DNA of 64,000 nt from Pyrobaculum sp. WP30 (GTDB lineage Archaea > Thermoproteota > Thermoprotei > Thermoproteales > Thermoproteaceae). Where the stretch lies: contig CP012158.1 in the NCBI GenBank assembly GCA_001189275.1, positions 1,116,001-1,180,000 of the forward strand. Direction: 5' to 3'. A program made the position numbers and the translations under genes. The notes below the pieces were generated by a model. The model did no database searches. It worked only from the letters and a program-made list of their open reading frames with translations, and was not told the DNA's origin. This document shows, piece by piece, positions 18,265 through 32,926 of the stretch (position 1 is its first letter; each line of letters starts with the position of its first letter).

Positions 18265-18564
18265 TTAACGTATATAGAGCTTTCCCTCCGCCGTGCTTCC
18301 AATTATCATGTACCCTTGGGTCTTCTCAATTGTTAACACTTGGTCTTTAGGCACCCACAGCCCACAGGTTATGTAGAGGCGGTCTGTGTAGTTTCTTATT
18401 TCAAACCTTCCGTAGATGCGAAGCTCCGAGCCTGGATTCTCCAACACAAACTTAACTGCTTGACAAACAGAAGGTGTAGAGACATATTGGACGCCGAAGA
18501 TTAGGGAAAGCGCCATGGTGGCCATCAACATCACTGCCACGAGGTCGAGGTATTCCTCTATCAT
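18265..18564 (-). CDS. Small single-TM protein at the end of the pilus-like locus
   Basis: 99 residues: a helix at residues 8-27 and then an outward-facing domain with two cysteines (VCQAVKF and YITCGLW) and an NYT sequon. No family recognised. Its ATG overlaps the stop of the preceding 88-residue gene by 4 nt, so it is translated with it. With its neighbours it forms a group of small membrane-anchored, cysteine-pair proteins that may be minor pilins or envelope assembly factors (inference). Confidence 0.6.
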   Translation of the reverse strand: MIEEYLDLVAVMLMATMALSLIFGVQYVSTPSVCQAVKFVLENPGSELRIYGRFEIRNYTDRLYITCGLWVPKDQVLTIEKTQGYMIIGSTAEGKLYIR

Positions 18565-18827
18565 GGCTTAAAACGGCAGTAAAGACTTAACACCTTATAG
18601 GCCAGGCCTGGATATGCTTCTAACCGACCTGAAGCGGTACATATGACGAAGCCGACCACTCTGTAGATCACAGATGGGTCTCCCACCTCTGCGTATTTAT
18701 ACGCCTCCGGCCAGTAGAGAAAAACCGCAGACAAGTCAGTCTTGCGCACCTCAACCGGCTTAATGAACAGCATAGCCGCCACCGCCAGCGCGAATATCAC
18801 CGGTATAAACACTATTTCTAGTCTCAT
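18561..18827 (-). CDS. Small single-TM cysteine-pair protein
   Basis: 88 residues. Hydrophobic segment at residues 5-22, then an external part with tyrosines and two cysteines (VICTASG, LYCRFKP) that could form a disulfide. No family recognised. Stands 17 nt downstream of the 163-residue gene and overlaps the 99-residue gene, so it belongs to the same leftward transcription unit. Confidence 0.58.
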   Translation of the reverse strand: MRLEIVFIPVIFALAVAAMLFIKPVEVRKTDLSAVFLYWPEAYKYAEVGDPSVIYRVVGFVICTASGRLEAYPGLAYKVLSLYCRFKP

Positions 18828-18844
18828 ACCAGCTTGAACACGAG

Positions 18845-19336
18845 TTAGCAGTTTACAACCACCAGCCTCATCTTGACCCCAGACGCCTCCACCTCAGCGG
18901 TCTCGGGTCTGAAGTCTGTCCCGGAGCGGCAGGTGGCGGCGTAGTGGGTGATGGTGCTACCCTGCACCCACGGCATGACCAGCACACAGTTGGTCAAGAC
19001 CACCGTGGCGTTTCTCACGGCGTAGGTCTTGTTGAGCATGTCTTGAATCGACGGCGGGCACTGGCCCAGGCTCAGCACGTAGACCGGTACGGCTGTTGCT
19101 CCGGGGCTGACTCTGTTGGTGAGTATCCACCTGCCGTTTGTGTATGTGTAGTTGGCGGGGTACAGCCTCACGGCTACTGGGGTGTCCAGGTGGGCCGCCT
19201 TCTCCGCTACTATAGACGCCGCCGCGGACACGAGGGGCGCTTGGCTGGAACTAAACATGCCCAACACGGTTGCCGCCACAGCCGCAGTGGCGGCCATAGC
19301 CGCAACGACGGTGAGGAGGTATCTAAAGGTCAGCAT
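18845..19336 (-). CDS. Single-TM exported protein with cysteine pairs
   Basis: 163 residues from ATG 19336 (a GTG at 19342 would add two). A long alanine-rich N-terminal helix (residues 4-30) is followed by a beta-rich external domain with NYT, NKT and NAT sequons and four cysteines (GQCPPS, LTNCVLV, ATCRSG, VVNC). It overlaps the end of the 922-residue gene by 7 nt, which links the two in one operon. Unrecognised family; an anchor or minor-pilin role is only an inference from context. Confidence 0.62.
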   Translation of the reverse strand: MLTFRYLLTVVAAMAATAAVAATVLGMFSSSQAPLVSAAASIVAEKAAHLDTPVAVRLYPANYTYTNGRWILTNRVSPGATAVPVYVLSLGQCPPSIQDMLNKTYAVRNATVVLTNCVLVMPWVQGSTITHYAATCRSGTDFRPETAEVEASGVKMRLVVVNC

Positions 19337-22098
19337 GGCCACATGACCAAGACGCTTCTGGCGCCCTTGGGGTAGCCCACCAAGTCGGCCCAGGTTTTGA
19401 ACAAAAGCGCAGTTTCGGGACGCCAGATCGCAACCGTGCTCCCTGGCGTAGCCTCTAGCTTCTGTTCCACAAGCGGCAGGACGAGGATTGGATCCCAGGG
19501 GAATATCCTAGAAGCGTTCACCAAGACACAACCTCTGTATTCATTGCCCACCTTGGTCGACACTTCGCCTATCTTGACCCACGCCCCGCCGCGCTGGGCG
19601 TAGAAGGCGAAGCCAGCCACGGGGCCGTCCGCCCTGACCCTCACAAGGCCTCTCCAGGGGCCTACCAGCTCCAGCTTCGGCTTGGTGTAGACGTACTCTA
19701 TGTTGACTGGTCTCAGCAACGTGTTGGCCAAGCCGAAGGAGCCCCAGAAGTCGCCAGAGAACATGAGCTGAGACGCAGGATAGGTGTTGTCGTACCACGT
19801 TGAGACGCACGCTGGCGGCGAGAGCCTGCCGCCTTCGCCGTAGCTGTATACTGCATGGTAGTACTGGACGCCGTCCAGCATGAGGTAGGCCGTGATGTTG
19901 AAGGGCGTGGCCGTGATTGTCTCTGGGACTGGCGTGGACGTTGTGATGTGGTACTTCACGTCGTTGGTCACTTGGAAGACGTAGGTGGAGTTTTTCCCGT
20001 TGTCTTCCACAATTACCTTGACAGGTCCAAGCCTGTCGGGCGTCGCGTATATCGACGAGACGCTGACGGGCATTGTCTCACATGGGCCGAGCTGTCTGTA
20101 GGGCACCCACCAGCCCGGGCCCACAACGACGGCTTCGAAGGGCTTCCACTCCTTGTTTATCTCGATCATCCTGTAGTTCCTAACCCTGGAGACGTTTATA
20201 GACAGGCCAGACGAAACCACGTACCCGTCCTCTACGTAGATCTTGATCCTATGCCTGCCAGTGGAGTTTAGATACATCAGCATTATGGAGTAGCCGAAGT
20301 TAGGCAAGGCCCTGTCTCCTGGGAAGGGCGGCAGAGGCCCCAGCACCTCCGGGCTCAGCGACGTGCAGAGCATAGACTTGCAGGCGGCAGTGGGGACAAG
20401 CCAGACAAGCCAGGAAGACACCGAATCGGTGACATCCTTGCCGACGGTCTGTGGCGCGGACGGTATGAAGAGCGCCCCGGCGTCTGTGGGGTCGATTCCA
20501 GTCGTGTGGTACAGCTTGACCGAGCCAGCGCTGTCTGCCGTTGTGCTAGCATAGTACCGTGCAGTGTGTAAATAGACCATCGCGTATTGGTCTCCACTGC
20601 CCCAATAGTACGTGGTTGGTTCGCCATAGAGGAAGTGGAGAAGGTCGACATGGCGGCCACCGCTTATGTCGGGGTGGTTCTGCTTCAAAGCATCGGTAAT
20701 CCAAATCGGGGCAGTTAAGCCTATATATGTGGGCGTAGAGTTACACAATTCTGTCTTAATAATCCAAGAAATTTCGGCTTTGGGGCGTTGAGTGGGGTAG
20801 TACGGCACTGGCCAGCTGTACCAGCCAAGCTCTACTGTTGACACATGCTCATCGACAGCGATGGCGATTTTAGACTTGCTCCATATAGAGGCAGGGAAGG
20901 GGCCGTTGATCTTCCCCTTTTCAGCAACACCCTCATAGTAGGTGGGACTACGGATCACGCGGGCGTATGGCGTGTCAGCCAAGCGAACTACAACAATACC
21001 AAGTCCCGACGACCACCAAACTTCCACCACAGGGAAAATGATGGAGCCAAACGGGAGATGTATATCCGCCCCTAAATAGCCTTCTTCCTCGCTTAGCTTA
21101 AAGGAGACACCTTCGGTCATCGTGACGCCGCTCTGCACGGCCACCAAAGATGCGTATTGGATGTCCATTACTTTTTGATTACACCACTTAGTACGGTTTT
21201 CCCACGCCAGCACGACGCAGGCGGGCGGCCTGCAGAACGCCGTAGGGGGTTGCCGCGACGCCACAGGCTTCACGACGTAAATAGGCGCCTTTGCGCCCGT
21301 TGCCTTCACAACCCCCCACTTCTTCGGCATCCCCACCGCGTAGAAGTACACCGAAGAAGATACCGGGACGTCCTTCGCATTCTTGGGTTCATAGACATCT
21401 GAGTCGTCTATCCGGACGAAGGAAAGCGTTGCCATGTTGTCGGGTTCAAGGCTGTACTCCCAGGGTTTCGGTATCGTGGCGTTTACCCCATACGCCTTCA
21501 CTGTCTCACCTGGCCTGCGGCCGTTAACCTGGAGGGCTTGCCACTTGGAGTAATTAACTGAGACTTTGTTGGGGTCTGGCTTGACGGTGGGGCAGTTGGG
21601 CCAGCTTTTGACAGATGGAGTCGACGAGCAGTAGGTGTCTTCGAGCGGCTTGGAGACTTTGACGGAGGTCGATTCGCTGTGTTCCGCGGCTGTGTCTGGC
21701 ACTTTGAAGGTTATGGTGGTCTTCTTCCTCTCGGGCTTCTGGGCCAGCACGTCGTAGTAGCGCACCTCGACATTGCCGCTGTTGTTGTAGACGCATTTGT
21801 ACTTGTCGATTCTCCAGCTCTGATTGGGGGCATAGTGCTCCAGAGTCACCTTAAATTCCAGCGGCCCATCCCACTGCACGCTACTTACAGTTTCGTAGAG
21901 ATAGGCGTACGAGGTGGTGAAGCCGACGAGACCAGAGCCGGAGAACACAGGCGCTATCGACGTAAAGTCGAAGCTTATGTCGATGCTGTCGGTGGTGTCT
22001 TTCGTATCGCTTGATTCTACTGTGCAGGTCAGCGTTGCGTTTCCAGCCGCTACGGCTACGGCTAGGAGGAGGACTGCCAGCAGTCCGGCCCGGTACAT
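19330..22098 (-). CDS. Large exported surface protein (922 aa), unknown family
   Basis: A clear Sec signal peptide (MYRAGLLAVLLLAVAVAAGNA) precedes about 900 residues that read as beta-rich extracellular sequence: many Tyr, Trp, Thr and Pro, numerous N-x-S/T sequons and several cysteines. No C-terminal membrane helix is seen, so it is secreted or held by partners. The size and composition suggest an S-layer-associated, adhesin-like or filament-cap protein. The gene has its own copy of the AAGGTTTTTCC element about 27 nt upstream of ATG. Confidence 0.7.
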   Translation of the reverse strand: MYRAGLLAVLLLAVAVAAGNATLTCTVESSDTKDTTDSIDISFDFTSIAPVFSGSGLVGFTTSYAYLYETVSSVQWDGPLEFKVTLEHYAPNQSWRIDKYKCVYNNSGNVEVRYYDVLAQKPERKKTTITFKVPDTAAEHSESTSVKVSKPLEDTYCSSTPSVKSWPNCPTVKPDPNKVSVNYSKWQALQVNGRRPGETVKAYGVNATIPKPWEYSLEPDNMATLSFVRIDDSDVYEPKNAKDVPVSSSVYFYAVGMPKKWGVVKATGAKAPIYVVKPVASRQPPTAFCRPPACVVLAWENRTKWCNQKVMDIQYASLVAVQSGVTMTEGVSFKLSEEEGYLGADIHLPFGSIIFPVVEVWWSSGLGIVVVRLADTPYARVIRSPTYYEGVAEKGKINGPFPASIWSKSKIAIAVDEHVSTVELGWYSWPVPYYPTQRPKAEISWIIKTELCNSTPTYIGLTAPIWITDALKQNHPDISGGRHVDLLHFLYGEPTTYYWGSGDQYAMVYLHTARYYASTTADSAGSVKLYHTTGIDPTDAGALFIPSAPQTVGKDVTDSVSSWLVWLVPTAACKSMLCTSLSPEVLGPLPPFPGDRALPNFGYSIMLMYLNSTGRHRIKIYVEDGYVVSSGLSINVSRVRNYRMIEINKEWKPFEAVVVGPGWWVPYRQLGPCETMPVSVSSIYATPDRLGPVKVIVEDNGKNSTYVFQVTNDVKYHITTSTPVPETITATPFNITAYLMLDGVQYYHAVYSYGEGGRLSPPACVSTWYDNTYPASQLMFSGDFWGSFGLANTLLRPVNIEYVYTKPKLELVGPWRGLVRVRADGPVAGFAFYAQRGGAWVKIGEVSTKVGNEYRGCVLVNASRIFPWDPILVLPLVEQKLEATPGSTVAIWRPETALLFKTWADLVGYPKGARSVLVMWPC

Positions 22099-22119
22099 GT
22101 GTGGCCGATGGATAACGGG

Positions 22120-22131
22120 GGAAAAACCTTA
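22120..22131 (-). promoter_or_regulatory. Pilus-locus promoter element, copy 1
   Basis: Reads TAAGGTTTTTCC on the minus strand, centred about 27 nt upstream of the ATG of the 922-residue surface protein. It replaces the usual TATA-like box. Confidence 0.6.
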
Positions 22132-22140
22132 GGTTTCGTG

Positions 22141-22845
22141 TTAACGACGCTGGGGGCAGGCCAGCGGGACTTTCAACGGGTAGTCCACCACCAGTATATA
22201 CAGCGCAGACGGCGGCGCGGCGACGTAGAGCATCGTTACGCCGCTGGTGGCGTTGTGGACAAGGGCCCACTCGACCTTGACGAGCTCCATAAACCCTACA
22301 TTTGCGTCTACACTGAGGGCCAAACCCACAGCGGGCGACCTGCGCGACACCGTGTAGTAGTTGTAAAGCCAGCTGTAGTACTGGGTGATGTTCCGCGGCA
22401 CTGCGGCGTAGACTTCGAGCCACGGCAGTGGGTCGAGGGAATGCTTAAGCTCGACCTCGTAGAGCATGGCGGCGGTGCCGCCTTGAAGCGTTGCGTTTCT
22501 ACATCTCGTCACGTTTAGATAGACTTGGTAAACTACGCTCTCCCCAGCTCTCTCAAGCCTGTACCCCACCGGCAGGTACACCGGGAATGTCACCCACTGC
22601 TTTGCGACATAGTCGTACGCCGTGGCGTTGGCCTTCACCACCCTCACCACGTTGACGAAGACGCGGAAACGCGACTTAACGTCCACCTTCGGGAACGAGG
22701 GGAGGTATTCGGCTAGCCACTTCTTGGCTCCGTAGAGCTGGTCTGCCAGGTTCACAGTCTTGAAATTCGGCGCATGCGCCGCGGCGTAGAGCACCACAAA
22801 GGCAACGACGGCGAGGGCAATCAAGCCGTACGCCAGCGACCACAT
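22141..22845 (-). CDS. Single-TM exported protein in pilus-like locus
   Basis: 234 residues with an N-terminal membrane anchor (residues 4-26, AYGLIALAVVAFVVLYAAAH) and an external domain carrying NAT and NVT sequons and two cysteines (TRCRNA near the middle, ACPQ at the end). No recognised family. Lies 10 nt downstream of the 373-residue gene, so probably transcribed with it; only the shared element precedes the next gene. Confidence 0.62.
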   Translation of the reverse strand: MWSLAYGLIALAVVAFVVLYAAAHAPNFKTVNLADQLYGAKKWLAEYLPSFPKVDVKSRFRVFVNVVRVVKANATAYDYVAKQWVTFPVYLPVGYRLERAGESVVYQVYLNVTRCRNATLQGGTAAMLYEVELKHSLDPLPWLEVYAAVPRNITQYYSWLYNYYTVSRRSPAVGLALSVDANVGFMELVKVEWALVHNATSGVTMLYVAAPPSALYILVVDYPLKVPLACPQRR

Positions 22846-22855
22846 GTCAGCCCCT

Positions 22856-23977
22856 CTAGCACACCTTTATGAAGGTCGCCCTGGCGTTCATGGTGGAGTC
22901 TGGCGACTCGAACCACACAGTGGTCACAAACCAAGGCACTGTGAAGCTATTGTACTTAGGCCCTTCTTTGTTCCACGTCCATATCAATGTCTTCCTACCG
23001 GGTAGATTGTAAGCCTGCCCATCTAACACATACACCTCATGCCAGTAGCCTCCCTGCGAGGAGATGCGGGTGAGGACGATGTACTGGGTGAAGGTGATGC
23101 GCCAAACCTCGTCTATGTACAGGGCGCCGTTTGTCGGGTCGCAGTTGTGGCAGTCCTCCCAGGCCAGGAGGAAGTCGGCGAAGGCGCCTGTAGGCGCCGA
23201 GAGGGTGTAAGACGCCCCGGCTGGGTTCACCTGCACCGTCACGCTGGTGTAGCCCTTCTTCCAGTAGTTGGTGAGGTCGAAGATCTTAAGCGATGTGGAG
23301 GGCCGGAGATCTTCTGTGTTGTTTGACGTAAACACCTGTGCCCTGACTAGGTCTGTTATGCTGATTCGAGCTATCAAGGTGTGCCACTCGTCGAGGAGCG
23401 GCGGCGCGTATATATGTACGCGGTAGACGCCCGCCATCGGGATGGAGAAGGATACAGAGCCAGGTATCGTAGTTGTACCTGAAAACACCAGCCGCCCCTC
23501 TTCGTCGTATACATCTACAGTGACCACGTAGCGCTCTGTGAGGTTTGCGTCGAATCTATAAGTGTATGTACAGCTTCTCCAGTCTGAGCTGGTGGTGATG
23601 TTGACAAAAGGCAGTTTCGGCCCCAAAACGTCGCGGCCGAATCTCGGCGAGGAGCCGTCGCACGACACGTACGCCACCCCGCCGAACACCCAGAGGTACA
23701 TAGCCGGGCTACACGTGGCGTTCTCCCCTATCTTCAGCGGTCTTCCCTCATCAGCTCTGTAGGCCCATCCGTACCTCGCCACCTCTCTTGTGCCTAAGTA
23801 AAGCGAGGCGTAGTTGCCGTACTGCCGTATCCAGTACCCGCCCGTAAGCTTGAAGGCGCAGTCTGAACACGCCGGCACCGGCGAGGCTCCCTCCCCCGCG
23901 GGAAACAGCGAAGCTATTACGGCGGCGGCGAGGGCCGCAAGCCCCGCGAAGATCAAGATATCTCTAAAGGCGATCAT
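22856..23977 (-). CDS. Single-TM exported protein with cysteine pairs
   Basis: 373 residues from the ATG at 23977, which overlaps the previous gene's TGA (ATGA). A longer frame upstream exists but runs through the previous gene. N-terminal helix (DILIFAGLAALAAAVIASLF), then CSDCAFKL, a beta-rich domain, and CHNC further on; the terminal residue is Cys. The middle part (YVVTVDVYDEEGRLVFSGTTTIPG) looks like an Ig/CARDB-like beta sandwich. Likely extracellular; function unknown. Confidence 0.65.
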   Translation of the reverse strand: MIAFRDILIFAGLAALAAAVIASLFPAGEGASPVPACSDCAFKLTGGYWIRQYGNYASLYLGTREVARYGWAYRADEGRPLKIGENATCSPAMYLWVFGGVAYVSCDGSSPRFGRDVLGPKLPFVNITTSSDWRSCTYTYRFDANLTERYVVTVDVYDEEGRLVFSGTTTIPGSVSFSIPMAGVYRVHIYAPPLLDEWHTLIARISITDLVRAQVFTSNNTEDLRPSTSLKIFDLTNYWKKGYTSVTVQVNPAGASYTLSAPTGAFADFLLAWEDCHNCDPTNGALYIDEVWRITFTQYIVLTRISSQGGYWHEVYVLDGQAYNLPGRKTLIWTWNKEGPKYNSFTVPWFVTTVWFESPDSTMNARATFIKVC

Positions 23978-24435
23978 GGCATCCCAGGACAGCTGTACTG
24001 AACAAGAAGCCACCTGCCTCTGGAGGTAAGCCCCACGGGGACGCAAGTCCTGCTGACACCGACCCTGTCTGCCTTTACGTCAAACGGCGGCGGGCACCAC
24101 AAACCAGTGTAGGGGTCTGGCCCTATCCTCACCGGGGCGCGTGTATACCTTGTGCAGTTGTAGCCGCCGGGGTAGACTGTGAAGACTGCGGCGAGGGTGC
24201 CTGGAACCCCCACTGCTCTTCTAAAGGCCTCTGGGTTGCTTCCTGCGTACTCCACTGCGTAGAGTCTGCCCGTGTGGTTGTAGACGTAGATACGTATAGT
24301 CGGCGCGTCCTTTCCGGGCGCCGCCGGCACTTCAACTATTTTCGACGGGAGGAACGGTTTAAGCGTCGCCACTGCCATTACGAACAGTGCCGCTAGGGCG
24401 GTTACGAAGACCGTTGCCGCTATGAAGTCCTCCAC
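23974..24435 (-). CDS. Pilin-like small membrane-anchored protein
   Basis: 153 residues. The first 30 (EDFIAATVFVTALAALFVMAVATLK) form one hydrophobic helix preceded by a glutamate, like the start of a mature type IV pilin, but there is no K/R-G processing site. The external part has NHT and NCT sequons and four cysteines (YNCTRY, LWCPPP, RTCVP, YSCPG). GTG start, with an AAGGTTTTTTCC element 28 nt upstream. Could be a minor pilin; family not recognised. Confidence 0.6.
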   Translation of the reverse strand: MEDFIAATVFVTALAALFVMAVATLKPFLPSKIVEVPAAPGKDAPTIRIYVYNHTGRLYAVEYAGSNPEAFRRAVGVPGTLAAVFTVYPGGYNCTRYTRAPVRIGPDPYTGLWCPPPFDVKADRVGVSRTCVPVGLTSRGRWLLVQYSCPGMP

Positions 24436-24456
24436 GGAGGGGAAAGAGAGGGGGAA

Positions 24457-24469: not shown

Positions 24470-24477
24470 CCTTTGGA

Positions 24478-25635
24478 CTATTTTCTCCTTCTAAACATTA
24501 AGGCCGTGACGGCGGCCCCGGCGGCCGCCCCCACAGTTGCGCCTATCCAGGCGGCGCGCGTCCAGGTCTCAAGCTGGGTTCGTAGCTGGGCTGTCTGGGA
24601 GGCATATGCCTCGTTTAGCTTAGCGAGAGTCTCATTCATAGAGGCTATCTGCGCCTTCAGCGCCTGGTTTTCGGCCGTGAGCTGGGCGAGCTGGGCCGCC
24701 ACGGAGGTGCGGACTGCCTCAAGCTGAGACCTGTAGGCGTTGGTCTCCGCCTCAAGTTGCGCGCGCGTGTAGTTGAGCGCCTCCAGCTGGGCCCTCAGCC
24801 TCTGGTTCTCCGCCGCAAGCCGGGTCGCTTCGCCCCTCGCCTCGGCCAGAGCCGCGTTGAGCTGGGCAATAGTCACGTTGAGCCGTGCCGCCGTGGCGTT
24901 GAGCTGGGCCGTCTTGTTCGCCAGCTCCGCCTCCAGGTCGGATATCCTCAACCTGAGCCTCTGGAGCTCCGCCATGACGGCCGTGTCGTTGCTCGGAATT
25001 CTGAAGACCTTCTTCGTCACCACGTCTAGATACCAGCCTCCGGGAATGACGTAGTCCCCGGGAGGCGCCGCTGGCACTTCTACCTCTACTCTTGTGTCTG
25101 TGAAGTTGACGGCCTCTACCCCCTCGGCGATTAAGTCGTCAAATATATACGGCAGTAGTCTCAGCCAGAACCACCGGTTGCCATATAGGCAGTAGATGTC
25201 GGAGATCCATATCTGGGTGGTGGGGTTCAGCTCAATTACCTTGTTGGGGGCGACCATGGCGATGCCCTGCGCACAGTATCGATTCTTAATGTGCCACCCG
25301 ATGAAGTCGGCGATGACCTGCGGCCGCCGAACTCTGGAGAGATCCATCCTCACGCCCTCCTGGACGACGTAGATGGTGGCAGGCTCGTATCTGCACCCGC
25401 CGCCGCAGACGCGTACTGGGTACGTGCCTATGAACCATATAGCCTCAGGCTTGAGCCACGTCACGTTGAGAAGCATCAAGTTCATAGGCACGGCATGCGG
25501 CGGAAACCACAGCAGATAGACCGATCCAATAATGTTCGATCTATAGTAGTAGGGGCTTAAGCTAGGCGGCGATGAGGCCGCCGCGGCTACGGCCAGCAGT
25601 AGCGCCGCAACCAGGGCTGTTTTTGGAACCGTCAT
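24478..25635 (-). CDS. Surface coiled-coil protein with C-terminal membrane anchor (paralog 1)
   Basis: 385 residues: signal peptide (ALVAALLLAVAAAAS), an N-terminal globular domain of about 180 residues (FPPHAVPMNLM, DIYCLYGNRWFWLRLLP, IPGGWYLDVVTKKVF), then about 130 residues of heptad-rich coiled coil with a few asparagine-threonine sequons. A glycine/alanine-rich transmembrane helix ends in FRRRK. The layout is that of a membrane-rooted stalk with a head outside the cell. It is a clear paralog of the next gene upstream. No AAGGTTTTTCC copy precedes it; a TTTTTTAACC run lies 22 nt upstream. Confidence 0.75.
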   Translation of the reverse strand: MTVPKTALVAALLLAVAAAASSPPSLSPYYYRSNIIGSVYLLWFPPHAVPMNLMLLNVTWLKPEAIWFIGTYPVRVCGGGCRYEPATIYVVQEGVRMDLSRVRRPQVIADFIGWHIKNRYCAQGIAMVAPNKVIELNPTTQIWISDIYCLYGNRWFWLRLLPYIFDDLIAEGVEAVNFTDTRVEVEVPAAPPGDYVIPGGWYLDVVTKKVFRIPSNDTAVMAELQRLRLRISDLEAELANKTAQLNATAARLNVTIAQLNAALAEARGEATRLAAENQRLRAQLEALNYTRAQLEAETNAYRSQLEAVRTSVAAQLAQLTAENQALKAQIASMNETLAKLNEAYASQTAQLRTQLETWTRAAWIGATVGAAAGAAVTALMFRRRK

Positions 25636-25678: not shown

Positions 25679-26662
25679 CTACTCCTCTGCCTTCTTCTGC
25701 CTGTATATGAAGAAGGCGGCGGCTACTCCGGCCAGCGCAATTGGCAGTACGTAGATCAGGGGGTTGGGCCCCTCCTCGCCGCCCGACACCCGGGTCTCCA
25801 GTTGCGTCTTTAGGGACGACAGCTGGTCGTTTAAGCTGGCCAAGGTCTGGTTCATAGAGGCGAGCTTTGCCTTGAGCTGGTCGTTTTCAGCCTTGAGCTG
25901 GGCCAGCTGGGCCTTGAGCCGCTCGTTCTCGGCCTGGGCGGCGCGTAGGTTGGCTTGGAGCGCTGTCAGCTCAGCCTCCCTCTGCCGGAGGGCCTCCTCA
26001 AGGGCGCGCCTCTGCGCCTCCAGCCGCTCTGCTTGGGCCTCCAGCTTGGCCGCCAGAGAGGCGGTTTGGTTCGCATCGGCCCTGCTCTTGTCCAGCTCAG
26101 CCTTGAGTGCCTTGAGCTGGGCCGAGAGGCGGTCGACGTATGCCAAGAGGGTTATGTTGGCTTCCGGAATCATGAAGACGGCCTTAGTCGCGGGGTCTAG
26201 GTACCACCCGGCGGGGATGTAGTTTGTGAAAGTGCCCACGGGCGTGATTACAGTCGCATTGGTGGCGTTGGCGAACTGGACGTAGCCGCTGTATGCTGTG
26301 AAGCGGAGCGGAAGCCACCTCAGCCAAAGCCACATGGAGCCGTCTGAGGAGCAGTACACGTCGGCGAGCCAGAGTTGCTCGCTCTCGGAGATCTGCGTGG
26401 CGTTGAGCACGTCCACGGCCATGTGCTGGCACTGGGAGTAGAGGTACTGCATGACAGCCTGCTCCTCGGCTGGAGAGCCGTGGAAGGACAGGTTCGCCTG
26501 CACTATGTAGACCGTCGTGTTGTTTACATACGTGGTGAAGTGGGTGGCGTTCATGGGATACGCCTGCGTCAACACCGCATGCGGCGGGATCCAGCTCACA
26601 TACGCCACCGCATAGGCCGCCAGCAACAGAGATGTTACCCAAGCCCACTTCGCTTTCGACAT
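25679..26662 (-). CDS. Surface coiled-coil protein with C-terminal membrane anchor (paralog 2)
   Basis: 327 residues with the same plan as its neighbour: N-terminal signal/anchor, head domain (WIPPHAVLTQ, DVYCSSDGSMWLWLRWLP, IPAGWYLDPATKAVF), about 110 residues of coiled coil (repeated Q-L-K-A heptads) and a C-terminal helix ending KKAEE. The matching motifs PPHAV, YC...W.WLR.LP and IP.GWYLD show that the pair arose by duplication. Preceded by the AAGGTTTTTCC element. Likely structural or stalk-forming; no recognised family. Confidence 0.75.
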   Translation of the reverse strand: MSKAKWAWVTSLLLAAYAVAYVSWIPPHAVLTQAYPMNATHFTTYVNNTTVYIVQANLSFHGSPAEEQAVMQYLYSQCQHMAVDVLNATQISESEQLWLADVYCSSDGSMWLWLRWLPLRFTAYSGYVQFANATNATVITPVGTFTNYIPAGWYLDPATKAVFMIPEANITLLAYVDRLSAQLKALKAELDKSRADANQTASLAAKLEAQAERLEAQRRALEEALRQREAELTALQANLRAAQAENERLKAQLAQLKAENDQLKAKLASMNQTLASLNDQLSSLKTQLETRVSGGEEGPNPLIYVLPIALAGVAAAFFIYRQKKAEE

Positions 26663-26735: not shown

Positions 26736-27218
26736 TTACGATATCCCTACTGTAACCACCCCCTTGGCGATTTGTACCGTCTTGCCGCTTGAGGCGTCTA
26801 CGGCGTATATGACGTAGGTGTACTGAGTTCCGGGGGTTAGAGTGTAGGGGCCGAATCTGCAGGTGATTGACTGGCCAGCCGACACTGGCGGGTTTATGCT
26901 GTTGGACCGGACGCCGGTCTGAACGCTTCCGCCCCGAGCCACTGTACACGTGCCAGGTTGCGGGCTACCCAGGTTATTGCCAGATGCGGCGTAGGCCAGC
27001 AACACGCCGCTTAGACGGCCGTTCAGCACCTCCACGGTGACGTCGAAGCCCGCCCTGTCGGCTGTGGCTATGGCGTTGGCTCTGAGGCTTTCGGCCGCGG
27101 ACTTGCCCATGCCTTGGAATGTAAGCAGACCTATCACGCCCACTATTATGAACGCCGCGGCGATTAGCAACGCCTCCACCGTGGTTAGGCCTTTCATTTT
27201 GGTTTTAGTTTTGGGCAT
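26736..27218 (-). CDS. Type IV pilin-like protein with class III signal peptide
   Basis: 160 residues from ATG 27218. The start MPKTKTKMKG followed by LTTVEALLIAAAFIIVGV is a typical archaeal class III signal: a short basic leader, K-G at the prepilin peptidase site, then a hydrophobic helix with Glu at mature position 5. The mature protein (about 150 residues) is rich in Gly, Ser, Thr and small residues with two cysteines (GTCTV, ITCRFG), as in archaeal pilins. It sits next to the membrane platform gene. The start fits the promoter element 26 nt upstream. Confidence 0.82.
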   Translation of the reverse strand: MPKTKTKMKGLTTVEALLIAAAFIIVGVIGLLTFQGMGKSAAESLRANAIATADRAGFDVTVEVLNGRLSGVLLAYAASGNNLGSPQPGTCTVARGGSVQTGVRSNSINPPVSAGQSITCRFGPYTLTPGTQYTYVIYAVDASSGKTVQIAKGVVTVGIS

Positions 27219-27238
27219 AAGCCCGTAGACAGCTGGCC

Positions 27239-27250
27239 GGAAAAACCCTA
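27239..27250 (-). promoter_or_regulatory. Pilus-locus promoter element, copy 4
   Basis: Reads TAGGGTTTTTCC on the minus strand, centred about 26 nt upstream of the pilin ATG (27218). It supports that start over the in-frame one at 27263. Confidence 0.58.
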
Positions 27251-27259
27251 TGTCCGCCG

Positions 27260-28456
27260 TCACAGCAGAGCCAGCAGGACTTGTTGCAGGGCTACGCCTG
27301 CGATGCCTCCTAGGAGGGCGGACTTGTGTATGCCTTCGGGCGCCATGAATATCGTGATGTAGCTTGCGGCTATTAGAGACATGGCTGTGGCGAGGATGGC
27401 CTTGACCTCCTCATACGGCGGCGGGGCGAGGAGGGGCATGTAGCCGAGCTCTGCGGAGGATAGTTGCTTCGCGGCTGAGGAGATGGCGAAGGCCACTATC
27501 ACCACCGCAACTATGAACAAGGTGAAGTAGGCCGCGGCCTGCCTAACCATCTTCTTAATTGTGGATGACTCTATGTCGATTATGGTCTGTATGTACTCCA
27601 CGGCCTTGACGGCGGCGACGCCTCCGGCCTCTACTATGGCGCGGTACATGGCCTTGGCCAGGACGAAGTATTTAGAGGGTATGAAGTAGCCGTAGGCGAT
27701 TTTGGCGGCCACCCTGTACCGCCCAATGAGGCGGCCGATGATGAGGTCGGGGGGAGCGCCTTCTTTAAGCATCGCCGCGGTTGACCGGAGCATGGGCGGA
27801 ACCTCCCGCCTAATGCCGAACCACCACAGCCTGTCTTTGAAGTACAGCCAGAGGTAGGCGACGGCGCCGAAGGCGATGAAGGCCGCCGGTGGATAGAACA
27901 AGCCTGCCACGGCGCCAGCGGCGAGGCCCAGCGGGATAGACCACTCGTAGGTGCGCAGTAGGTTTACATCCATCGGCGACGACATAAGCGCCACCGCCGC
28001 CAAGCCGCCGGTCATGCCGAAGACGATGCCCAAGAGGAGGGTGGGGTCTACGTCGAAGATCCCGATGGCCCATAGGAAGAGGAGGAACAGGGGTAGCAGA
28101 AACAGCGACCCAAGCGACGAGTTGATTGATTCGTACATCCTCGCCTTGGTCTCTGTCTTAGCCACCGCCACGGCCTTCATGCTCTCCAGGAAGGAGTGGA
28201 CGAGAACCTGCCTCTCCACGCCAGCCTCCTCCTGCGCAAGGGCGAAGCCGAACTGCCTAGCCGTCTCGTCCTTGTCCTCGATGAACTGGGAGGAGGGCGT
28301 GGGCATGAGCGACGCCACGAAGAGCCTCCTGGACTCGGTTTCGTCCAGCTCAGCCGTGTTGAAGGAGGTGTGCTTAAGCGCCTCGTTCCCCGACGATACG
28401 CCTATGTATGTGGCGAATATAGGAGCCGCCGATATGTAGAAGTCCTCCTTCTTCAT
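27260..28456 (-). CDS. Type IV pilus / archaellum-type membrane platform protein (TadC/FlaJ-like)
   Basis: 398 residues with about seven membrane helices in two groups, separated by a cytoplasmic basic region (RLIGRYRVAAKIAYGYF, KAVEYIQTIIDIESSTIKKMVRQAAAYF). This is the TadC/FlaJ/PilC plan: the integral protein on which the assembly ATPase acts. The N-terminal 110 residues are soluble. It lies between the pilin and the ATPase, the expected order. Promoter element at 28480-28491. Confidence 0.8.
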   Translation of the reverse strand: MKKEDFYISAAPIFATYIGVSSGNEALKHTSFNTAELDETESRRLFVASLMPTPSSQFIEDKDETARQFGFALAQEEAGVERQVLVHSFLESMKAVAVAKTETKARMYESINSSLGSLFLLPLFLLFLWAIGIFDVDPTLLLGIVFGMTGGLAAVALMSSPMDVNLLRTYEWSIPLGLAAGAVAGLFYPPAAFIAFGAVAYLWLYFKDRLWWFGIRREVPPMLRSTAAMLKEGAPPDLIIGRLIGRYRVAAKIAYGYFIPSKYFVLAKAMYRAIVEAGGVAAVKAVEYIQTIIDIESSTIKKMVRQAAAYFTLFIVAVVIVAFAISSAAKQLSSAELGYMPLLAPPPYEEVKAILATAMSLIAASYITIFMAPEGIHKSALLGGIAGVALQQVLLALL

Positions 28457-28479
28457 ATAACCGGGGGAGAAGCCGAAGA

Positions 28480-28491
28480 GGAAAAACCCTG
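28480..28491 (-). promoter_or_regulatory. Pilus-locus promoter element, copy 5
   Basis: Reads CAGGGTTTTTCC on the minus strand, centred about 29 nt upstream of the platform-protein ATG. Confidence 0.55.
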
Positions 28492-28529
28492 CGAACGGCC
28501 CCCTCAGCTGTCCCGGATGCGCCGAACTG

Positions 28530-28865
28530 TTAGATTAAGTTGCTTAAGACCTCTCTTATGTGCTCCAGCTTCCCGGCCCTCTCCACAGCCTTAGGGAGCT
28601 CCTTCACCGCCTCGGCCGGGGAGGTGCCGGAGGCCACGCGTCTTATGATGTAGTCCACGGCCATGTCGAGGTGTTTCATGTCTATAGTCCTGGCCACGAG
28701 CCGCCAGTCCTCGGCCTCTAGCCATATCCCGTGTCTAGCCAGCTTCACCACAGCCTTGAGGAGCTTCTTCTCCTTAACCCCCAGCTCTTTTGCCAACTCC
28801 TCGAGCCACCTCGCCGTGGATAGAGTGAAGCCGTGCTTAAGGGCCAGCTTCTCCAGCCTGCTCAT
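28530..28865 (-). CDS. Small soluble helical protein in pilus-like locus
   Basis: 111 residues, entirely helical pattern, no membrane segment or cysteine pair. Begins MSRLEKLALKHGF and contains ATAR-like helices (VVKLARHGIWLEAEDWRLVARTIDMKHLDMAVDYI). Its ATG overlaps the preceding gene's TGA (ATGA). No family recognised. May be a cytoplasmic accessory of the assembly ATPase (inference from position). Confidence 0.6.
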   Translation of the reverse strand: MSRLEKLALKHGFTLSTARWLEELAKELGVKEKKLLKAVVKLARHGIWLEAEDWRLVARTIDMKHLDMAVDYIIRRVASGTSPAEAVKELPKAVERAGKLEHIREVLSNLI

Positions 28866-29107
28866 GGGCTCAGCCCGAGGAGCTTCAAGGCGAGTTTCAC
28901 GTAGGGGTCGTCTCTGCTTTGAAGCGCCTTTACTAAAACCTCCTTAGGAAGCGACGGTATCACTTTCTCCGCCACTTCAGATGGCATCTCCACAAGCGCC
29001 TTGACGAGGCAGTCTTGCCAGCTCTCCCGCCCAGCGTCGGGTCTCCTCCCGCCGCCTACCTCTCCGTCTTGTTCTAACACCTCGGCAAGCGACTTCTTCT
29101 TCAACAT
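28862..29107 (-). CDS. Small soluble protein in pilus-like locus
   Basis: 81 residues; begins MLKKKSLAEVLEQ, has a glycine/arginine-rich linker and a helical C-terminal half with repeat-like KALVEMPSEVAEKVIPSLPKEV. Unrecognised. It has its own promoter element (29128-29140) and is translationally coupled to the 111-residue gene. The pair may be a small toxin-antitoxin-like or accessory pair, but nothing in the sequence shows it. Confidence 0.55.
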   Translation of the reverse strand: MLKKKSLAEVLEQDGEVGGGRRPDAGRESWQDCLVKALVEMPSEVAEKVIPSLPKEVLVKALQSRDDPYVKLALKLLGLSP

Positions 29108-29127
29108 AGACGGCGATTTATACCACC

Positions 29128-29140
29128 CGAAAAAACCTTA
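29128..29140 (-). promoter_or_regulatory. Pilus-locus promoter element, copy 6
   Basis: Reads TAAGGTTTTTTCG on the minus strand, centred about 27 nt upstream of the ATG at 29107. It overlaps the stop of the ATPase gene; a more ordinary TATA-like GGTATAAAT lies only about 10-15 nt from the ATG, too close to be the box. Confidence 0.55.
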
Positions 29141-30667
29141 AATGTACCCAAAGCGCCTGGCCTCTTCGTTGAGGTACTCTCTAAAGTCCAGCCGACCCTG
29201 CCAGACCGTCTCTAAGACCGTCCTCCTGGCGGCCGCCGGGTCCTCCACCTCCGAGGCCTTTATCAACGCCTCCATCCTCAGAGAAAGCTCTTTCTTTAAG
29301 TCGTTGTCGTACATGTCTCTCACATAAGACGCAACTCTAGCCGCAAGCTCAGAAGGCTCGGCCACGTCGACCTCTCTGCCTTTGGCTACCACCGCCTTCA
29401 CCTCCTTGACGAAGCGCGTCCCTCCCACGGCGGAGAGCTGAATTACAAGAGTCCCGTCCAGCCCCTCCGGCGGCGCCTCGGCCTCTTTAATGCGCAGAAC
29501 AGCGTCGCCGACAGTGTCGGCGTGCATCGTCGTAAGAGCCCCGTGTCCCGTTAGCTTGTAGTTCACAAGCGTCCTAAGCTCCTGCGGCGTCCTCGCCTCC
29601 GCCAGCGCCACCAGCGTGTGCATAGTGCCGTAGCGCAGAGCTTGGTCCAGAGCCATCCACAGCTTGTCCTCAGAGGGGACGGAGAGGTGGAGCATCTGCC
29701 CCTCAAGGGGGGCCCAGATCTCCCGGGCGCCCCGCTCCACCGTCACTACTTGAAACCAAGGCGGGGTGAGGTAGAGCAACTGATTCAGTTGCGTGGTCTT
29801 GCCTGTGCCCATGCCCCCTGAAAACACCACCGAGCCCCGCGTCTCGATGACGAGAGAGGCGAAGGCAAGGACTTCAAGCCCCTCTGGGCTGTACGGCTCA
29901 GCCTTAGCCTCGCCGACATGTTTAGGCTTCGTCAGATACGGCCTCAACAACGACCTAGAGGGCTTGGGGTACGCCGACGCCTTTCTTATGTTCACATTGA
30001 ACTCGAGGAGGTCTGCGGCTATTCTAGCCTTGTAGATCTGGTCCTCCCGCGTAAGCATAGGCCTGTCCATGGTTAACGACGGCAACAACTGCTTAACCAC
30101 CACGTACATAAGCGGCTCTGGGATGACGATGTTTGTGGGCAGGCGGAGTTCGTTCCTCACCGCCACGACGCGTCTGTACCGCCCCAGCTCCACCATCTGG
30201 AACTTGATGTAGTCCAGCTGCTCCTTTAGGTTCTTGGGTATGTAGGTGTATTTGGCGGCGGGCGCCACGGGCTGGGGGATTACGATTTCGGTGAGCATGG
30301 GGTCTCGCATCAACGCCTCAAGCGCCCCGTAGCCCATGTACTCCCTAGCCCCAGACCACCTGTCCAGGAGGTAGTGGACCACATCTCTGTATTCTCTGTA
30401 GAGAGACCAGATGGCCTTATCTCTGAGGCCTTCGGCTACTGATTTTACCAGCTTGGGGTACTCTCTCTCGTCTGGGGGAACTGCCCCCCGGAACATAATC
30501 AACAGCAACGCCGTCTGTAGGTCGTCGGGGAGCTCCGGGTCTATGACGACGTACATGAGGTCTTCTGTGATGCATACGTCCGTCCTCACGCCTCTGTCCA
30601 CTATGACGCCCTCTTTCCTAAGGACACAACGCGACTTGAGGACGGCGTCTACGTGGGCGTAGATCAT
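29138..30667 (-). CDS. Type IV pilus / archaellum-type assembly ATPase (VirB11/TadA superfamily)
   Basis: 509 residues. The C-terminal half holds the secretion ATPase motifs: Walker A GGMGTGKTT near residue 285, an acidic Asp-box region, Walker B-like HTLVALAEART and the His box GHGALTTMHADT. The N-terminal half (about 250 residues) has the TadA/FlaI-like N domain with MLTEIVIPQPV. Such hexamers power pilin insertion. The first gene of the locus's central part; its start overlaps the MinD-like gene's end by 4 nt. Confidence 0.87.
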   Translation of the reverse strand: MIYAHVDAVLKSRCVLRKEGVIVDRGVRTDVCITEDLMYVVIDPELPDDLQTALLLIMFRGAVPPDEREYPKLVKSVAEGLRDKAIWSLYREYRDVVHYLLDRWSGAREYMGYGALEALMRDPMLTEIVIPQPVAPAAKYTYIPKNLKEQLDYIKFQMVELGRYRRVVAVRNELRLPTNIVIPEPLMYVVVKQLLPSLTMDRPMLTREDQIYKARIAADLLEFNVNIRKASAYPKPSRSLLRPYLTKPKHVGEAKAEPYSPEGLEVLAFASLVIETRGSVVFSGGMGTGKTTQLNQLLYLTPPWFQVVTVERGAREIWAPLEGQMLHLSVPSEDKLWMALDQALRYGTMHTLVALAEARTPQELRTLVNYKLTGHGALTTMHADTVGDAVLRIKEAEAPPEGLDGTLVIQLSAVGGTRFVKEVKAVVAKGREVDVAEPSELAARVASYVRDMYDNDLKKELSLRMEALIKASEVEDPAAARRTVLETVWQGRLDFREYLNEEARRFGYI

Positions 30668-31368
30668 GCCACCTTCAGGCGGTATACAAGCTGGTCTACA
30701 GCCTTCCTGTTTTCGCGGTCTCTCAACACACTGTCGGCCACAGACTCGCCGTAGTAGTCCTTGATGGAGACGCGTTTAAGCACAACAGGCGCTATCTTCC
30801 TAGCCATCTTCACCTCGTCTTTCTCCACTAGGTTTACCACCACCAGGCTGGCGTAGGCCATGTATCTTCTGTACTGCTCAGCCTTGACGTCGGATATGCG
30901 GGAGATGAGGCGGCGGTCTGTCATAAATATATTATAAACGCCGTGTTTCTGCAACCTGGAAAGAAGCTCCGTCCTCAAGGCGGCTGTCGTGTCTATGATC
31001 ACTGTGTCCGCCGGCATCCTCAGCCGCTGGACGAACTTCGGCAGGTGCTCAACCCACTCCATCAACGCCTCAGCGAAGTCCCCCGCCACGTCCTCCCCCA
31101 TCCTTTGATAAAGCTCGAAGGCCTCGTACCCCGGCACGAGATATAACATGGGGGTTATCTTGTGGACGTAAGGCGCGTCGCCCTTGAGAAAAGGCGCCAG
31201 CCAGCCCGGCTTCCGAGGCGCTCTAAAGAGCTGTGAAAGATCCGCCTTCTCCCAGTCCATGTCGATAAGAAGCACGTAGCCCTTGGCGACGCCCAACACG
31301 CTCGCCAGAGTCGTCTTCCCAACCCCCCCGTCGAGGGAGGTCACTAACGCGATCTTCAGCGGCCGCAT
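30664..31368 (-). CDS. MinD/ParA-like P-loop ATPase
   Basis: 234 residues of the SIMIBI MinD/ParA class: SLDGGVGKTTLASVLG at the start, LIDMDWEKADLS, then VIIDTTAAL. The deviant Walker A is KGGxGKT in most members; here the signature lysine is replaced by Asp (DGGVGKTT), so the usual cross-dimer contact may be lost. Related ATPases place polar pili, secretion systems or chemoreceptors. Its coupling to the assembly ATPase suggests that it positions the machine (inference). Confidence 0.8.
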   Translation of the reverse strand: MRPLKIALVTSLDGGVGKTTLASVLGVAKGYVLLIDMDWEKADLSQLFRAPRKPGWLAPFLKGDAPYVHKITPMLYLVPGYEAFELYQRMGEDVAGDFAEALMEWVEHLPKFVQRLRMPADTVIIDTTAALRTELLSRLQKHGVYNIFMTDRRLISRISDVKAEQYRRYMAYASLVVVNLVEKDEVKMARKIAPVVLKRVSIKDYYGESVADSVLRDRENRKAVDQLVYRLKVA

Positions 31369-31697
31369 AACGCCTCGGCGATTCTCTTGTATACATACTC
31401 CGCGGCGGCCCTCCTAAGGCCTTCGCCGTCCGCCACAGGCCCCACAAGCCTCTTAAGCTCGGCAAGGACGTTGGAGGCGGTCTTTATGTCTGAAAGCTCG
31501 GCAAGACGTAGAAGAGACGGCCTGACCTTGACCCCCCGTCCTCTTATGTTCATAAGCGCAAGCCTCGCCGCTATGCACACGTCCTTGTGGGACTGGTAGA
31601 ACTCGACGTCTCTACACGCCCTCTCCACCTCCCTCAGCAGAGCCGCAGTTGAGGCGTCAAACATAACACTCCCTAAGCCGCTCCGGGTCTTCGACAA
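31356..31697 (-). CDS. Small soluble protein upstream of MinD-like gene
   Basis: 113 residues, helical, with a basic middle (IRGRGVKVRPSLLRLAELS) and two cysteines. No family recognised. Overlaps both neighbours (13 nt downstream, 41 nt upstream), so it belongs to the same operon. Could be an adapter for the MinD-like ATPase. Confidence 0.55.
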   Translation of the reverse strand: MSKTRSGLGSVMFDASTAALLREVERACRDVEFYQSHKDVCIAARLALMNIRGRGVKVRPSLLRLAELSDIKTASNVLAELKRLVGPVADGEGLRRAAAEYVYKRIAEALCGR

Positions 31698-32262
31698 TCT
31701 TCTTCACTACTTCGACGAAGCCGGCGTCTAGCTCAATCTTCTCTCTTAGAATCTTCACCAGCTCCTCCAAAAGCCACGTCTGCGGCCTCGGCGGCTGCTC
31801 TGCCTCCCTCTGCCTCAGCTGCCTGGCGGATGCGGCTACCAGCTTGCTTACGACGACAACGGGGTCTTCACAGACCACGGGGTATTCGTCGCAGAGGCCT
31901 GCGAATCTGATCAGCTCGGGGTTTATTTGAAAGAGGGGCACTTTGTCCACCCCCGTGGCGAAGTCGATAAGCGTCTTCACCGCTTGCCTCGCCTTAGACT
32001 TGGCGAATCTCCGCATGAAGGTGGCCATGGGACACTTGGACAAACCGGGCTTCACCCTGCCGTACACCACGTTCAGTCCGCCCTCCAGCGCCGCGACGAC
32101 GTAGACAACCACGAGGTCACCCTCTCCGCAGTAGGCAGACGCCTCTTCAGGCTCCGCCATGTATACCTCCTTCAAGAGATATACTCCGCCGGGGGGCGGC
32201 CCCCACTGCATTCTCCAGCCCTCGCCGAGCCGCGCCTCCACCTCTTTGAGCACCGGTGCCAT
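31657..32262 (-). CDS. Cytoplasmic protein of pilus-like operon, unknown
   Basis: 201 residues: an N-terminal alpha/beta part (GVYLLKEVYMAEPEE, GDLVVVYVVAAL), a basic helical middle and a helical C-terminal third. Four scattered cysteines (AYCGEG, SKCPMA, AGLCDE, VVCEDP). No membrane segment, no recognised motif. Start codon is an ATG at 32262, 4 nt after the previous gene. Confidence 0.6.
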   Translation of the reverse strand: MAPVLKEVEARLGEGWRMQWGPPPGGVYLLKEVYMAEPEEASAYCGEGDLVVVYVVAALEGGLNVVYGRVKPGLSKCPMATFMRRFAKSKARQAVKTLIDFATGVDKVPLFQINPELIRFAGLCDEYPVVCEDPVVVVSKLVAASARQLRQREAEQPPRPQTWLLEELVKILREKIELDAGFVEVVKKIVEDPERLRECYV

Positions 32263-32266
32263 GGCC

Positions 32267-32926
32267 CTACGACGGTACGTACAAGACTTCGGCGGCTGAC
32301 TTTTTTGTACGGAGCGCCGTTTCGTACATACGGCCGAGGGCCGCGTCTATGTGGGGCATCCTCCCCGTGTCGAGCCAGTAGAGCCACTCCGCCAATGCCC
32401 TGTTTCGCCTATCTCTCCACCTAGTCCAAGCCACCCATGCGTAGCCGCGGCTTTGCGCCACCTCTCTAAGCCACGCCGGAAACGCCTCTCTAAACACCTC
32501 AAGAGGCTTGCTCCGCGGCACCGCAGACACCCACTTGAAGAGAGAGGAAGCCCTGTTCCTCCACACGTAGTTAACCTCTCTGCTCAACGAAGCCAGGAGG
32601 AAGCAAGGCGAGATTTGGATGCGGAGGCCTAGCTGTTCTTCGTTGTGCACGTAGGGCCACCTAGCCCTGGCGCCGGGATCCACGTAGCCACCTTCCGCAA
32701 AGAGCCTCCACTCCTCGCGGAAAGGTCCGCCAAAGACGAGACCTCTAACCGCTATACCAGCCACGCCGGGGTTGTCAAGAATGTACCTCACCACCTGGTC
32801 TATGTCGCCAGCGACGTGCTTTAGACGTCGTATCAGCTCATTTACGAAGTCCTCTCCCAGGAGGAGCCGCCAGTCCTCAGGCTCGCTGTGGAGAAATATA
32901 CAGGGATCCGTCTTAGGCTTCAACAC
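32267..32926 (-). CDS. First protein of pilus-like operon, unknown
   Basis: 219 residues, rich in Trp and Arg (AWVAWTRWRDRRNRALAEWLYWL), no membrane segment. Not recognised. GTG at 32926 with TTG immediately after; a CTTAAAAGG box lies about 20 nt upstream and is the only canonical TATA box for the long leftward operon. As the first gene it may encode a regulator or a cytoplasmic assembly factor, but no DNA-binding motif is visible. Confidence 0.6.
   Translation of the reverse strand: MLKPKTDPCIFLHSEPEDWRLLLGEDFVNELIRRLKHVAGDIDQVVRYILDNPGVAGIAVRGLVFGGPFREEWRLFAEGGYVDPGARARWPYVHNEEQLGLRIQISPCFLLASLSREVNYVWRNRASSLFKWVSAVPRSKPLEVFREAFPAWLREVAQSRGYAWVAWTRWRDRRNRALAEWLYWLDTGRMPHIDAALGRMYETALRTKKSAAEVLYVPS

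What the first reader, a model, noticed from the sequence alone, without database searches (positions are those of the whole stretch)
18265..32926. A 14.7-kb locus combining a type IV pilus-type ATPase/platform with a MinD-like ATPase, coiled-coil stalks and a 922-aa exported protein
The locus has the recognisable T4P core (ATPase with Walker A and His box, seven-TM platform protein, class III signal pilin), but its other genes do not match the usual Aap, Ups or archaellum sets: two paralogous coiled-coil surface proteins rooted by a C-terminal helix, at least five single-TM cysteine-pair proteins, a very large secreted protein, and a MinD-like ATPase directly coupled to the assembly ATPase. 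It reads as an undescribed appendage or secretion apparatus in Thermoproteales.
Basis: partly seen in the sequence, partly recalled or inferred. Interest (0 to 1): 0.78.

Follow-up and report, generated by a model that had tools for sequence, protein, structure and literature searches.

The report
Pilus locus sharing parts with DNA-transfer machine
This stretch of a heat-loving archaeon's genome encodes a predicted, never-isolated surface pilus of a type already listed in a 2016 survey; what appears new is that its internal control genes recur in, and in two relatives the whole pilus cluster directly adjoins, the genes of the archaeal DNA-exchange machine.

Summary
In detail: 18 co-oriented, tightly packed genes (18265-32926, minus strand) encode a T2SSE/VirB11-type ATPase, a polytopic membrane protein, a class III pilin, six single-TM pilin-like proteins, two coiled-coil proteins, a 922-aa exported protein, a MinD-like ATPase and five small cytoplasmic proteins. 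The window genome belongs with Pyrobaculum. 'Undescribed' is wrong: gene content matches type IV pilus subclade 4G (Makarova 2016). It remains experimentally uncharacterised.

What I found that the papers I could search do not mention: (1) The cytoplasmic module (g18, g17, MinD-like, g13, g12; less clearly g16) recurs outside pilus loci. Every confident copy except one relic pair lies in a Ted or Ted-like locus (Ted: the Thermoproteales conjugation-like DNA-exchange system). (2) In P. oguniense copy 2 and in one MAG, the pilus cluster runs straight into tedB-type genes. (3) The MinD-like protein has Asp where MinD/ParA proteins have their signature Lys. (4) Several minor pilins lack the class III leader that Thermoproteus orthologues keep.

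Most likely it is an adhesion/aggregation pilus on an exchangeable TadZ/VirC1-like positioning module. An unproven reading makes it the Thermoproteales counterpart of Ups; against that, the window genome and six other near-complete genomes have the pilus without Ted.

The parts
32267..32926 (-). g18, 219-aa cytoplasmic all-helical protein heading the cluster; homologues head Ted loci
   Evidence: AF2 pLDDT 88.8, no PDB fold match; genome-wide profile hits only in T4P loci and Ted or Ted-like loci
31657..32262 (-). g17, 201-aa cytoplasmic protein; homologues in one Ted locus (G018) and one Ted-like locus (G028)
31356..31697 (-). g16, 113-aa small cytoplasmic protein; relatives in the Ted locus of G018 and above the G017 pilus
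30664..31368 (-). g15, MinD/FleN/TadZ-like ATPase with Asp in place of the signature Lys (SLDGGVGKTT); overlaps the ATPase gene by 4 bp
   Evidence: CbiA 1e-5; PDB profile hit archaeal MinD 1g3q 1.7e-5; D13 invariant in 14 of 14
29138..30667 (-). g14, pilus assembly ATPase (T2SSE/VirB11 family)
   Evidence: Pfam T2SSE 2.7e-10; 74-83% identity across the genus
28862..29107 (-). g13, 81-aa small cytoplasmic protein, also in Ted loci
28530..28865 (-). g12, 111-aa small cytoplasmic protein, also in Ted loci
27260..28456 (-). g11, polytopic membrane platform (TadC-like by position and published assignment)
   Evidence: six hydropathy TMs; own homology test inconclusive
26736..27263 (-). g10, major pilin; likely start about 27218; class III leader MKG|LTTVEALL
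   Evidence: leader present in all orthologues; no Pfam match
25679..26662 (-). g9, signal peptide + ~150-aa head + ~115-aa coiled coil + C-terminal TM; orthologue in all full Pyrobaculum-genus loci except G001
24478..25635 (-). g8, paralogue of g9, seen only in the window genome
23974..24435 (-). g7, single-TM minor pilin-like protein, 4 Cys; Thermoproteus orthologues start MKG|Q/MRG|Q
22856..24046 (-). g6, single-TM minor pilin-like protein (conserved start about 23977), conserved N-terminal ~137 aa, often variable C-terminal part; MRG|LTTLRD leader in G003/G005
22141..22845 (-). g5, leaderless pilin-like protein (MWSLAYGL; Thermoproteus MKG|QWSIAFAL)
19330..22098 (-). g4, 922-aa exported all-beta protein with 14 Cys, candidate tip or shaft adhesin
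   Evidence: AF2 pLDDT 70.8, only generic multi-Ig-like fold matches; 27-34% identity within the genus
18845..19342 (-). g3, single-TM Cys protein, minor pilin candidate
18561..18827 (-). g2, 88-aa single-TM Cys-pair protein
18265..18564 (-). g1, 99-aa leaderless pilin-like Cys-pair protein (MIEEYLDL; Thermoproteus G012 MKG|VEELIEI)
   Evidence: in-frame stop just upstream of the start

Best explanation
The locus encodes an archaeal type IV pilus of subclade 4G. The T2SSE/VirB11-type ATPase drives the platform protein, which assembles class III pilins into a filament. Pilin-like minor subunits and the fast-evolving all-beta 922-aa protein would form the tip or decorations that contact other surfaces or cells. 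The coiled-coil, C-terminally anchored proteins would span the gap between membrane and S-layer near the pilus. The MinD-like protein with g12, g13 and g16-g18 would be an exchangeable cytoplasmic base that recruits or places the machine, comparable to TadZ or VirC1; the same base is reused by Ted DNA-exchange loci. Shown: gene content, conservation, the Asp-for-Lys change, leader loss, module sharing, adjacency to Ted in two relatives. Inferred: filament formation, tip location, positioning role, S-layer spanning.
For: T2SSE ATPase and MinD family hits; class III leader on the pilin in all orthologues and on orthologues of g1, g5, g6, g7; gene order conserved across Pyrobaculum and Thermoproteus; item-by-item match to published 4G; published HMM-HMM similarity of arCOG05608 with TadZ (PMC6668835); module homologues outside T4P found in Ted or Ted-like loci; conservation gradient from 74-83% (ATPase) to 27-34% (922-aa).
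Against: No filament from this locus has been seen; the one solved Pyrobaculum T4P (6W8U) is not detectably related to this pilin. Platform homology to TadC was not confirmed. The prepilin peptidase in the window genome is only a sub-threshold match (0.0016). The 922-aa model has no specific structural match.
Confidence: 0.78

Rival explanations
1. The 4G pilus is the Thermoproteales counterpart of Ups: it aggregates mating cells so that Ted can move DNA, the two being coordinated by the shared MinD module.
For: P. oguniense copy 2: T4P genes followed about 1.1 kb later, same strand, by Ted genes including TedC. G006: g1-57 bp-g13-ParA-160 aa-tedB on one contig. P. oguniense copy 2 and G017 pilus loci are headed by Ted-type g18/g17/g16 genes. 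Ted loci in G003 and G005 carry the T4P-type MinD, most of them with g13 and g12. Sulfolobales need Ups plus Ced, and Thermoproteales lack Ups (PMC9905601).
Against: TedC and the Ted AAA protein are absent from the window genome and from six other near-complete genomes that have the pilus; G014 has Ted without the pilus. Adjacency in only 2 of 15 pilus loci. No expression data.
Confidence: 0.3
2. The shared cassette is only a generic positioning and assembly module that any membrane motor can borrow; sharing says nothing about joint function of pilus and Ted.
For: MinD/ParA proteins serve both Tad pili (TadZ) and T4SS (VirC1) in bacteria; other Ted loci use a ParA with canonical KGGTGKT instead; Ted-type MinD nests within pilus MinD with a long branch, as after capture.
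Against: Does not explain the physical fusion of whole clusters in two genomes nor the restriction of the module to these two systems.
Confidence: 0.5
3. A pseudopilus-type secretion system exporting the 922-aa protein.
For: Large exported protein encoded within the cluster.
Against: The 922-aa protein has its own N-terminal signal peptide; no family hit links the locus to a secretion role.
Confidence: 0.07

Closest known systems
Archaeal T4P subclade 4G, Pyrobaculum-Thermoproteus group (arCOG05609/05611/05612/05608; Makarova 2016, PMC4858521)
   Same: ATPase, platform, pilin, FleN/MinD, two large secreted/anchored proteins, Cys-rich small proteins, two small helical proteins
   Different: Nothing essential; the window has a duplicated coiled-coil gene. 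Module sharing with Ted, leader loss and Asp-for-Lys are not in the parts of that paper I searched or read
Ted DNA-exchange system (Beltran 2023, PMC9905601)
   Same: Shares g18-, g17-, MinD-, g13- and g12-type genes; adjacent to the pilus cluster in two relatives
   Different: Ted is T4SS-like (TedA/B/C); none of these found in the window genome
Ups pili plus Ced of Sulfolobales
   Same: T4P and T4SS-like DNA exchange paired (functional analogy)
   Different: No direct homology tested; co-regulation unknown
TadZ/CpaE of Tad pili
   Same: MinD-family protein with atypical Walker A next to a pilus ATPase; published profile similarity
   Different: Archaeal locus; no secretin or other bacterial Tad genes recognised here
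Sulfolobus SlaB-type S-layer stalks
   Same: Secreted head, coiled coil, C-terminal TM anchor
   Different: Only a sub-threshold NCBIfam match (0.0037 for g8)

Membership tests
T4P subclade 4G | VirB11/T2SSE-family ATPase | tested here: met
   PF00437 2.7e-10
T4P subclade 4G | TadC-type platform | tested here: inconclusive
   No T2SSF hit; hhalign probability 21 and 0.2 against candidate platforms; polytopic
T4P subclade 4G | PilA-like pilin with class III leader | tested here: met
   K/R-G| leader and hydrophobic stretch in all orthologues; no Pfam match
T4P subclade 4G | FleN/MinD ATPase in the locus | tested here: met
   CbiA above cut-off, archaeal MinD in PDB 1.7e-5
T4P subclade 4G | One large protein with C-terminal TM, one with signal peptide; Cys-rich small proteins | tested here: met
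T4P subclade 4G | ATPase falls in clade 4G of the archaeal ATPase tree, arCOG numbers | not tested
   No labelled reference sequences at hand; supplements of the paper not readable here
Canonical MinD/ParA/FleN | Deviant Walker A signature lysine (KGGxGKT) | tested here: not met
   Asp in 14 of 14 pilus MinD proteins and in the intact Ted copies
Ted system | TedB and TedC in the genome | tested here: not met
   No TedC and no Ted AAA match; only generic HerA hits in G000
Archaellum / bindosome | Match above curated cut-off to FlaI or BasE | tested here: not met
   28.4 of 550 and 23.9 of 1000 bits
Ups | DNA-damage induction and aggregation | not testable with these tools
   Needs expression experiments
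Ups | Close homology to UpsA/B/E/F | not tested
   Ups sequences were not fetched

The most novel reading that the evidence does not exclude
The 4G pilus and the Ted T4SS-like machine form one cell-aggregation-plus-DNA-exchange apparatus that shares a cytoplasmic base built on a MinD-like protein without the signature lysine; this would be the missing Ups-equivalent of Thermoproteales, fused into single superclusters in some species.
Probability: 0.28. Interest if true: 0.85.

Novelty: new member of a known kind. Interest (0 to 1): 0.58.

Why it matters
Thermoproteales exchange DNA through Ted, but Ups pili, which in Sulfolobales bring cells together first, have not been found in them. This work names a concrete candidate, shows physical fusion and module exchange with Ted, and gives testable predictions. 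It also identifies a cytoplasmic cassette that serves both a type IV pilus and a T4SS-like machine, and minor pilins that seem to have dispensed with prepilin processing.

Tried and rejected
Undescribed system: rejected after reading Makarova 2016. Identity with the solved P. arsenaticum pilin: no sequence match. Fold of the 922-aa protein: only generic beta-sandwich matches at low TM-score in both libraries. Fold of g18: confident model but no match below E 4.9. Platform homology to TadC: inconclusive. First thought that the second system was an unknown mobile element or defence island: dropped when its TedC matched. tRNA-borne integration: no tRNA found near any locus, though ARAGORN's settings here may miss intron-containing archaeal tRNAs. 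Hidden leaders from wrong start codons: rejected for g1 and in most genomes for g5, where stops lie close upstream; less certain for g6 and g7.

Full report
Observation. The 14.7-kb locus is real and correctly placed. Eighteen minus-strand genes (g18 at the high-coordinate, upstream end; g1 at the low end) are packed with gaps of -73 to +73 bp. Only the ATPase (T2SSE, 2.7e-10) and the MinD-like protein (CbiA, 1e-5) pass curated Pfam cut-offs; NCBIfam adds only sub-threshold pilus-ATPase and MinD hits plus unspecific coiled-coil matches. Hydropathy shows one N-terminal TM in g1, g2, g3, g6 and g7 and a main N-terminal TM in g5 (which has a second weak segment), an N-terminal signal plus C-terminal TM in g8 and g9, six TM segments in g11, and 14 Cys in the 922-aa g4.

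Where it sits. The window is G000:C1:1116001-1180000 of a 1.99-Mb genome. All ten relatives of the same genus except the 74%-complete G008 have the locus. In most, part of the same flanking genes (metC-like, the 378-aa gene, or a cobalamin adenosyltransferase) is kept. Genus g3 (one member is titled Thermoproteus sp. UBA157) has a diverged version in G012, G015 and G016 and a Pyrobaculum-like one in G017. The 922-aa family is confined to this family of genomes within the order.

Already known. Makarova et al. 2016 (PMC4858521) describe T4P subclade 4G in Pyrobaculum-Thermoproteus with the same list of parts, so the system is described by bioinformatics, though I found no experimental study of it in the papers I could search. 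Denise et al. 2019 (PMC6668835) report HMM-HMM similarity of its MinD family (arCOG05608) with TadZ, an atypical Walker A protein that acts as a polar recruitment hub. That arCOG number is matched here by description, not by sequence.

Conservation gradient. Identity to the window falls from 74-83% (ATPase) and 64-77% (MinD) to 40-50% (g9), 35-46% (g5) and 27-34% (g4). In several genomes only the first ~137 residues of g6 are alignable. The outward-facing parts evolve fastest, as expected for adhesins or virus-exposed surfaces; this last step is inference.

Pilin-like minor subunits. Orthologues in Thermoproteus keep class III leaders: g5 MKG|QWSIAFAL, g1 MKG|VEELIEI, g7 MKG|QLSAPV, g6 VRG|VMDLYI. 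The Pyrobaculum proteins begin at or next to the processed position (g5 MWSLAYGL, g1 MIEEYLDL, g7 MEDFIAA). For g1, in-frame stops lie one to three codons upstream in most genomes, so the leader is truly missing there; for g5 the stop is three to eight codons upstream in most. For g7 some species have a possible RG leader, so that gene is mixed. The major pilin g10 keeps its leader everywhere. The window genome's prepilin peptidase is diverged (PF01478 E = 0.0016).

MinD-like protein. The deviant Walker A reads SLDGGVGKTT or SVDGGVGKTT; Asp 13 replaces the signature Lys in 14 of 14 pilus-locus sequences. Archaeal MinD is the closest solved relative. Loss of that lysine predicts altered dimer-dependent ATP hydrolysis (inference from the ParA/MinD family).

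Coiled-coil and 922-aa proteins. g9 occurs in all full Pyrobaculum-genus loci except G001; g8 is a window-only duplicate; Thermoproteus has no recognisable copy. About 115-135 residues of coiled coil would span roughly 17-20 nm (own arithmetic at 0.15 nm per residue), in the range of a membrane-S-layer gap (from memory). The g4 model (pLDDT 70.8) is all-beta with confident N- and C-terminal regions; matches in PDB and viral libraries are generic and of low TM-score.

Unexpected link to Ted. A profile of the MinD-like protein found copies outside the pilus locus in G003, G005 and G017. Their neighbourhoods in G003 and G005 carry g18-, g13- and g12-like genes (not all in every copy) but no pilus genes; downstream lie a 658-aa HerA/FtsK-type membrane ATPase, an AAA protein and a RecA-like protein. 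These are Ted loci: the corresponding P. calidifontis locus encodes TedC (PMC9905601), and TedC homologues are detected in G002, G003, G005, G006, G012, G014 and G018. That the 658-aa ATPase is TedB is inferred from position and family.

Specificity. Genome-wide in 45 genomes of the order, the g18 profile hits ten pilus loci and nine other places. Seven of the nine lie in loci that also hold Ted genes; one (G003 contig 4) lies beside the large ATPase and 155-aa genes that flank Ted loci, at a contig end; and one (G028) is only Ted-like, with g17, the large ATPase and a fragment of the giant protein but no TedB seen. The g17 profile hits ten pilus loci plus G018 Ted and G028. The g12 profile hits pilus loci, six Ted loci in G003/G005 strongly, one more with a stop codon, and an orphan beside a second MinD in G017; the remaining four hits are weak (5e-4 or worse).

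Fusion. In P. oguniense copy 2 the pilus cluster (MinD to g1) is followed on the same strand, after about 1.1 kb with a 257-aa ORF on the other strand, by Ted genes through TedC, a TedA-like gene and a 4372-aa protein with a PaRep2b domain. In MAG G006 one contig reads g9...g1, 57 bp, g13, ParA, a 160-aa gene, tedB; its other pilus contig overlaps by an exact 127 bp inside the coiled-coil gene. P. oguniense copies 1 and 2 are sisters in the ATPase tree (83/98) and G006 is separate, which suggests two independent associations. Pilus loci of P. oguniense copy 2 and G017 are headed by Ted-type genes (44-58% identity to Ted g18- and g17-type genes). The MinD tree places the Ted copies within the Pyrobaculum pilus MinD (87/89, long branch), so capture by Ted is more likely than the reverse; support is moderate.

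Limits. TedC is absent from the window genome and from G001, G004, G007, G009, G015 and G016, which have the pilus; G014 has Ted without the pilus ATPase. The pilus is therefore not dependent on Ted. I regard an adhesion/aggregation pilus with a shared positioning base as best supported, and a joint pilus-Ted apparatus as possible where both occur. Absence of reports linking the two rests on a limited library.

Noticed in passing
L044 / L086 (G012:C1:865436-874530): The pilus ATPase gene of this relative is split near residue 140 by about 7.5 kb carrying AAA, HD-domain and TnpB-like genes: a possible natural loss of the pilus.
   Followed up: partly
L081 4551-7506 (G017 contig 4): A second MinD-g12 pair (Thermoproteus type) without pilus genes sits beside a Pyrobaculum-type pilus cluster: looks like a relic of the old locus beside a horizontally acquired one.
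   Followed up: partly
G003 contigs 1, 2, 3, 5, 4/7 and G005 (three loci): Ted loci are multiplied to about five in one genome and three in another, with tedB copies up to 97% identical, unusual for a 'domesticated' single system.
   Followed up: partly
L115 1202-14320 (P. oguniense): A 4372-aa protein with a PaRep2b domain closes the pilus-Ted supercluster; shorter relatives of 1466-2104 aa follow Ted in other genomes.
   Followed up: no
window 32267-32926: g18 gives a confident all-helical AF2 model (pLDDT 88.8) without any PDB match: candidate new fold.
   Followed up: partly
L034 9758-10003: A ribbon-helix-helix-like 81-aa ORF lies antisense between the coiled-coil gene and g7 in both P. 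oguniense pilus clusters: possible regulator.
   Followed up: no
G000:C1:624606-624878: Likely diverged prepilin peptidase of the window genome, below the Pfam cut-off.
   Followed up: no
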